Shown here piece after piece: positions 32,346 through 32,795 of a stretch of 32,795 bases of DNA. Source of the DNA: Alphaproteobacteria bacterium (GTDB lineage Bacteria; Pseudomonadota; Alphaproteobacteria; CADEGL01); NCBI GenBank assembly GCA_026400755.1, contig JAPLOM010000006.1:1-32795 (forward strand), written 5' to 3'. The notes under the pieces are model-generated. The model was not told the origin of the DNA. It was given only the letters and a program-made list of their open reading frames with translations, and did not search any database. Each line of letters starts with the position of its first letter. Position 1 is the first letter of the stretch. A program made the position numbers and the translations under genes.

Positions 32346-32795
32346 CAACTTGAGAGTTTGATCCTGGCTCAGAACGAACGCTGGCTGAGAGTTTGATCCT
32401 GGCTCAGAACGAACGCTGGCGGCAGGCCTAACACATGCAAGTCGAGCGCGTGTAGCAATACACGAGCGGCGCACGGGTGAGTAACGCGTGGGAATCTGCC
32501 CTACAGTGGGGAACAACCACGGGAAACTGTGGCTAATACCGCATACGTCCTTCGGGAGAAAGGCTTAGGCCGCTGTAGGAGGAGCCCGCGTCCGATTAGC
32601 TAGTTGGTGAGGTAATGGCTCACCAAGGCGACGATCGGTAACTGGTCTGAGAGGACGACCAGTCACACTGGGACTGAGACACGGCCCAGACTCCTACGGG
32701 AGGCAGCAGTGGGGAGTATTGGACAATGGGGGAAACCCTGATCCAGCCATGCCGCGTGAGTGATGAAGGCCTTCGGGTTGTAAAGCTCTTTTGGC
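32346..32795 (+). rRNA. rrs: 16S ribosomal RNA, 5' part (runs off the window)
   Basis: The sequence carries universal 16S landmarks: AGAGTTTGATCCTGGCTCAG (27F site), GGCGGCAGGCCTAACACATG, GGCGCACGGGTGAGTAACGCG, ACTGAGACACGGCCCAGACT, CTCCTACGGGAGGCAGCAG (338-357 region) and the alphaproteobacterial TTGGACAATGG. By alignment with the E. coli numbering I remember, the mature 5' end should be near 32346 (CAACTTGAGAG). The gene is cut by the window end around E. coli position 430. Unusually, E. coli positions 6-40 are present twice in tandem (see the repeat at 32351-32420), so the RNA as written is 35 bases too long at its 5' end. Confidence 0.97.
32351..32420 (+). repeat. Perfect 35-base tandem duplication in the 16S rRNA 5' end
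   Basis: The unit beginning TGAGAGTTTGATCCTGG and ending CGAACGCTGGC occurs at 32351-32385 and again at 32386-32420 with no mismatch. The first copy follows the normal leader CAACT; the second continues into the normal GGCAGGCCTAAC. The unit equals E. coli 16S positions 6-40 and includes the whole 27F primer site. Confidence 0.95.

What the first reader, a model, noticed from the sequence alone, without database searches (positions are those of the whole stretch)
32351..32420. 35-base perfect tandem duplication at the 5' end of the 16S rRNA gene
Seen directly: two identical 35-base copies covering E. coli 16S positions 6-40. From known 16S structure, each copy carries the 5' strands of helix 1 (9-13/21-25), of the central pseudoknot helix 2 (17-19/916-918) and of helix 3 (27-37/547-556). 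If real, the ribosome must choose one copy or trim the first by an altered 5' maturation, which would be a new rRNA processing case. If false, it is a mis-join at a repeat boundary, common where rRNA operons break short-read assemblies. The artefact is more likely a priori, but the exact join and the normal leader before copy 1 make it worth checking.
Basis: partly seen in the sequence, partly recalled or inferred. Interest (0 to 1): 0.8.

Follow-up and report, generated by a model that had tools for sequence, protein, structure and literature searches.

The report
Assembly error doubling a 16S start
The 35-base repeat at the start of this bacterium's 16S ribosomal RNA gene is really in the deposited sequence, but it is most likely two overlapping pieces of a draft assembly pasted end to end without merging, not a real duplication.

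Summary
It is most likely an assembly artefact. The window is a whole contig of an 87-contig draft and stops 410 bases into the 16S gene; one search found no other rRNA. A same-genus genome has a closely similar leader and one copy; the alignment leaves a single 35-base gap at the join, and that contig also breaks in the 16S start. Copy 2 starts right after the last strongly variable leader column, where an assembly graph would branch. The join has no microhomology. In 18% of this assembly, 2 of 16 N-gaps are flanked by unmerged exact overlaps (21 and 10 bases). A scan of 84,980 species genomes found 11 doubled 16S starts, all in draft records: 7 on contigs ending inside the 16S, the other 4 in loci with Ns; lengths 28-72. 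Of 385 genomes sampled from the class only this one is doubled. A paper describes duplicated overlaps at scaffold joins, though with Ns between, which are absent here. No reads were available; a real duplication keeps about 3%.

The parts
32040..32350 (+). rRNA operon upstream region and 16S leader, read as genuine
   Evidence: Aligns closely with the same-genus genome G001 (L019) up to the base before copy 1, apart from scattered substitutions and one 18-base indel
32351..32385 (+). Copy 1 of the 35-base unit: continues the leader; read as the end of one assembly piece that reaches into the conserved 16S start
   Evidence: Identical to copy 2; preceded by the same leader as the single copy in G001
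32386..32420 (+). Copy 2 of the unit: read as the start of the next assembly piece, joined without merging the overlap
   Evidence: The Rfam RF00177 match starts five bases before it; it starts right after the variable column at -4 of 39 distinct sequences from relatives (T 18, C 11, A 10)
32386..32795 (+). 5' part of the 16S rRNA gene (410 bases), cut by the contig end
   Evidence: RF00177, 414.3 bits, match 32381-32795, model 1-440 of 1533, cut off at the 3' end; contig length 32795

Best explanation
It is an unmerged-overlap assembly error. One assembly piece holds the genome's own leader and runs 35 bases into the 16S gene, where the sequence becomes common to many bacteria and an assembly graph would branch. 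A second piece starts at the branch point (the T of TGAGAGTTTGATCC) and carries the first 410 bases of 16S. Scaffolding or gap closing placed the two end to end without collapsing the 35-base overlap. Shown: the repeat, the single copy in a same-genus genome, the contig end in the 16S, the variable column exactly before copy 2, unmerged overlaps elsewhere in this assembly, the same signature in other drafts. Inferred: that the two pieces existed, which program step joined them, and that reads would show one copy. The second piece might come from another organism; this was not testable.
For: Window = whole contig C39 of an 87-contig, 3.36-Mb assembly, ending inside 16S; an E. coli 16S-23S-5S query found only this fragment and two tRNA matches. 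Same-genus G001: closely similar leader, one copy, contig ends 49 bases after the first base of the unit (counted inclusively); the alignment leaves one 35-base gap at the join. In 39 distinct sequences from relatives column -4 is T18/C11/A10 and column -3 is T38/G1. In 608,466 bases of this assembly (18%, window included) 2 of 16 N-gaps have exact suffix-prefix overlaps of 8 or more (21 and 10 bases), against 2 of 20,000 random pairs. Genome-contig scan: 11 doubled 16S starts, all in shotgun draft records; 7 of 11 contigs end inside the 16S, 2 of 11 have N between the copies, periods 28-72. Class sample: 148 of 385 genomes hold the site (this one included), only this one doubled. 35 of 73 listed minus-strand sites lie within 600 bases of a contig start. 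Passages of PMC7111523 describe overlaps left duplicated at scaffold joins; passages of PMC7593591 and PMC11443906 say that conserved 16S blocks fragment assemblies.
Against: There are no Ns between the copies, unlike the published description and unlike the 21-base case in this assembly. No other N-free tandem duplication of this kind was found in the 18% sampled, and 14 of 16 N-gaps there show no overlap of 8 or more. [quoted passage not shown] 35 is smaller than the largest sizes I recall as usual. The assembler and the kind of sample (isolate or metagenome) are unknown. No reads were available.
Confidence: 0.95

Rival explanations
1. A real 35-bp tandem duplication at the 16S 5' end, tolerated because the ribosome uses copy 2 and the first copy is removed with the leader during 5' maturation.
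For: The deposited sequence has no Ns at the join, and the leader before it looks normal.
Against: A same-genus genome has one copy; no matching bases at the borders, whereas the 18-base leader indel nearby lies between short direct repeats (read by eye); none among the 384 other genomes of the class sample, 147 of which hold the site; in genome contigs the 11 similar cases are all in draft records, though I did not count how many finished genomes there hold the site; in complete E. coli genomes the best-ranked of 37,549 matching places covers only query bases 89-158, that is copy 2 on (five rows seen; this tests only repeats of about this length). The fold of leader plus both copies is not unusual (z -1.55, 11 of 200 shuffles as good).
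Confidence: 0.03
2. A chimeric join: the leader and copy 1 belong to this genome, but copy 2 with the 16S fragment comes from another organism of the same sample. This is a variant of the best explanation, and its share lies mostly inside that one.
For: The overlap is nearly invariant in the 39 sequences from relatives, so it cannot tie the 16S piece to this genome; passages of two papers report chimeric or misbinned rRNA pieces.
Against: None decisive. The first 49 bases of copy 2 are identical to those of G001, but these bases are mostly conserved.
Confidence: 0.15

Closest known systems
Local assembly error with overlap left at a scaffold join, in 'Accurate and complete genomes from metagenomes' (PMC7111523; passages seen)
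   Same: A sequence shared by two adjoining pieces is present twice at the join.
   Different: The description has Ns between the copies; here there are none.
Doubled 16S starts in 11 draft records of genome contigs, e.g. NZ_NADJ01000015.1 (gapCloser scaffold, one N at the join) and QBMC01000251.1 (five Ns)
   Same: Head-to-tail repeat of the conserved 16S 5' end after one leader; 7 of 11 on contigs that end inside the 16S.
   Different: Repeat lengths from 28 to 72; two have Ns between the copies; in three (L027, L035, L037) the identical run is a little shorter than the period.
Breakage of assemblies in conserved 16S blocks (PMC7593591, PMC11443906; passages seen)
   Same: Contig ends inside the 16S.
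   Different: Those passages describe fragmentation and chimeras, not this duplication.

Membership tests
Unmerged-overlap local assembly error (PMC7111523) | Flanking pieces share an overlap that is present twice | tested here: met
   Perfect 35-base repeat
Unmerged-overlap local assembly error (PMC7111523) | Ns inserted between the two copies | tested here: not met
   No N in the window. It works like this error but is not filed as the published N-gap form; 9 of the 11 similar records also have no N between the copies
Unmerged-overlap local assembly error (PMC7111523) | No single read supports the doubled sequence (the paper's test for local assembly errors) | not testable with these tools
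   No reads are held
Unmerged-overlap local assembly error (PMC7111523) | A close relative has one copy (my own criterion, not the paper's) | tested here: met
   G001, same genus
Real tandem duplication in a 16S rRNA gene | Present in relatives or in finished genomes | tested here: not met
   0 of 384 other class genomes, 147 of them with the site; the 11 similar records in genome contigs are all drafts
Real tandem duplication in a 16S rRNA gene | Supported by spanning reads or PCR | not testable with these tools
   No reads are held

The most novel reading that the evidence does not exclude
The organism really carries a doubled 16S 5' end, so that pre-16S RNA holds two competing 5' strands for helices 1 to 3 and must be matured at the second.
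Probability: 0.03. Interest if true: 0.6.

Novelty: not a real feature. Interest (0 to 1): 0.05.

Why it matters
It does not change what is known of ribosome maturation. It is of some practical use: a doubled 16S start in a draft genome is a recognisable sign of an assembly error (one pattern found 11 further records), and it adds a false insertion to leader or 16S alignments if not noticed.

Tried and rejected
An Rfam 16S search of the own assembly reported nothing although the fragment is there; DNA searches replaced it. One search used an E. coli query, so a diverged 5S or 23S piece could have been missed. Whether the 16S fragment belongs to this genome could not be tested: the three other family members in the sample (G002-G004) gave no match and G001 matches over 49 bases only. 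Folding the leader with both copies gave nothing notable. Site-specific insertion was rejected because nothing lies between the copies. Literature searches (no papers; 2 papers; 15 listed of 227) listed no title about a doubled 16S 5' end; of these I opened one, PMC7656271, and the passages concern a tRNA. Searches (no papers; 1 paper) were unproductive; (10 listed of 19) gave PMC7593591 and PMC11443906, (9 listed) gave PMC7111523. Passages only were seen of these papers.

Limits of the counts. One search uses only the 73 minus-strand rows that one search listed (the listing was cut), because only there does the contig coordinate give the bases left downstream; a few could be circular records cut near the 16S. 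One search leaves out the own genome, E. coli, the 11 doubled records and second loci of the same genomes, and counts identical sequences once. The genome-contig scan sees only repeats that hold the whole 19-base site twice, 20 to 80 bases apart, on contigs of 3,000 bases or more; how many records there hold one site was not counted. The 40 stretches are the first 20,000 bases (or all) of chosen contigs, not a random draw. The random-pair control compared 60-base ends, the gaps 300-base ends. L034 was too short for Rfam and is counted as ending in the 16S from its sequence and contig range. Two 15-base tandem repeats (window 20524, L092) were left out of the argument as short.

Full report
Observation. 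The window holds two perfect, adjoining 35-base copies at 32351-32385 and 32386-32420. Shuffled versions of the window gave no match to the unit (100 shuffles). Rfam's bacterial 16S model matches 32381-32795, model positions 1-440 of 1533, cut off at the 3' end; that is copy 2 plus five bases before it.

Setting. The window is the complete contig C39 (32,795 bases) of an assembly of 3,364,244 bases in 87 contigs. The contig stops inside the 16S. A search of the whole assembly with an E. coli 16S-23S-5S stretch found this fragment and two matches to the tRNA gene in the query, no other rRNA. So no second operon is at hand for comparison.

Comparison with a same-genus genome. G001 carries a closely similar leader and a single copy; its contig ends 49 bases after the first base of the unit, counted inclusively. 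The alignment has one 35-base gap exactly at the join, besides scattered substitutions and an 18-base indel further up. The 35-base repeat has no matching bases at its borders (T against C on the left, T against G on the right), unlike the 18-base indel, which lies between short direct repeats (by eye).

Why here. In 39 distinct sequences from relatives, the column just before the unit is split T 18, C 11, A 10, and in each of the next 38 columns one base reaches at least 90%. Further variable columns lie upstream (-8, -10, -11). Copy 2 thus starts at the first base after the last strongly variable leader column: the place where paths of different genomes would merge in an assembly graph (inference). 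Breaks are common here: 35 of 73 listed minus-strand 16S sites in the class sample lie within 600 bases of a contig start, 44 of 73 within 1,500. Passages of two papers state that conserved 16S blocks confuse assembly graphs and fragment assemblies (PMC7593591; PMC11443906).

The same kind of error in this assembly. I sampled 40 further stretches; with the window they make 608,466 bases. They hold 16 N-gaps. One, five Ns at C14:2935-2939 (L070), is flanked by a perfect unmerged 21-base overlap; another, 32 Ns in L073, by 10 bases; 14 show none of 8 or more. Random pairs gave 2 of 20,000. So this assembly was scaffolded and its overlaps were not always merged. The 35-base repeat is the only perfect tandem duplication with a period of 16 to 250 in the sample; this also means that no second N-free case was found.

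The same signature elsewhere. A scan of genome contigs (84,980 species genomes) for two 16S start sites 20-80 bases apart found 11 stretches, all in records titled as whole genome shotgun. Periods are 28, 28, 37, 45, 45, 47, 48, 58, 65, 67 and 72. Seven of the 11 contigs end inside the 16S (L028-L034). The other four (L027, L035, L036, L037) have Ns in the locus, two of them between the copies (L027, in a record named gapCloser; L037). L036 is the least telling: a complete operon with no N at the join. Lengths that vary so, draft records only and a bias to contig ends fit joining errors; I did not count how many finished genomes in the collection hold the site. In the class sample 148 of 385 genomes hold the site and only this one has it doubled. 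In complete E. coli genomes 37,549 places in 5,375 of 5,426 genomes matched the 161-base query, and the best-ranked covers only query bases 89-158, from copy 2 on; this speaks only to repeats of about this length.

Known kind. Passages of PMC7111523 describe scaffolds in which flanking sequences overlap and Ns were put between them, so that the overlap is present twice. The present case works like that, but has no Ns, so it is not filed as that exact form; 9 of the 11 similar records lack Ns between the copies too. [quoted passage not shown] 35 is smaller than the sizes I recall as usual, so the join may have come from an earlier step or a gap closer (inference).

Verdict. An assembly artefact, about 95%. 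The program step and the true origin of the 16S fragment are inferred or open. A real duplication keeps about 3%; only reads or a PCR can close it.

Noticed in passing
L070, 2935-2939 (contig C14 of the same assembly): Five Ns flanked by a perfect unmerged 21-base overlap, an assembly error of the same kind.
   Followed up: yes
window between 32135 and 32136, against L019: The same-genus genome has 18 more bases in the leader, between short direct repeats: a likely natural indel.
   Followed up: no
window 20524-20554: A 15-base unit twice in tandem, perfect.
   Followed up: no
window 27120-31789: Ordinary genes upstream of the rRNA operon: a ClpB-like AAA+ protein (27120-29711) and an M23 peptidase family protein (30443-31789, minus strand).
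   Followed up: no
L027-L037: Eleven public draft records carry a doubled 16S start that could be flagged for correction.
   Followed up: partly
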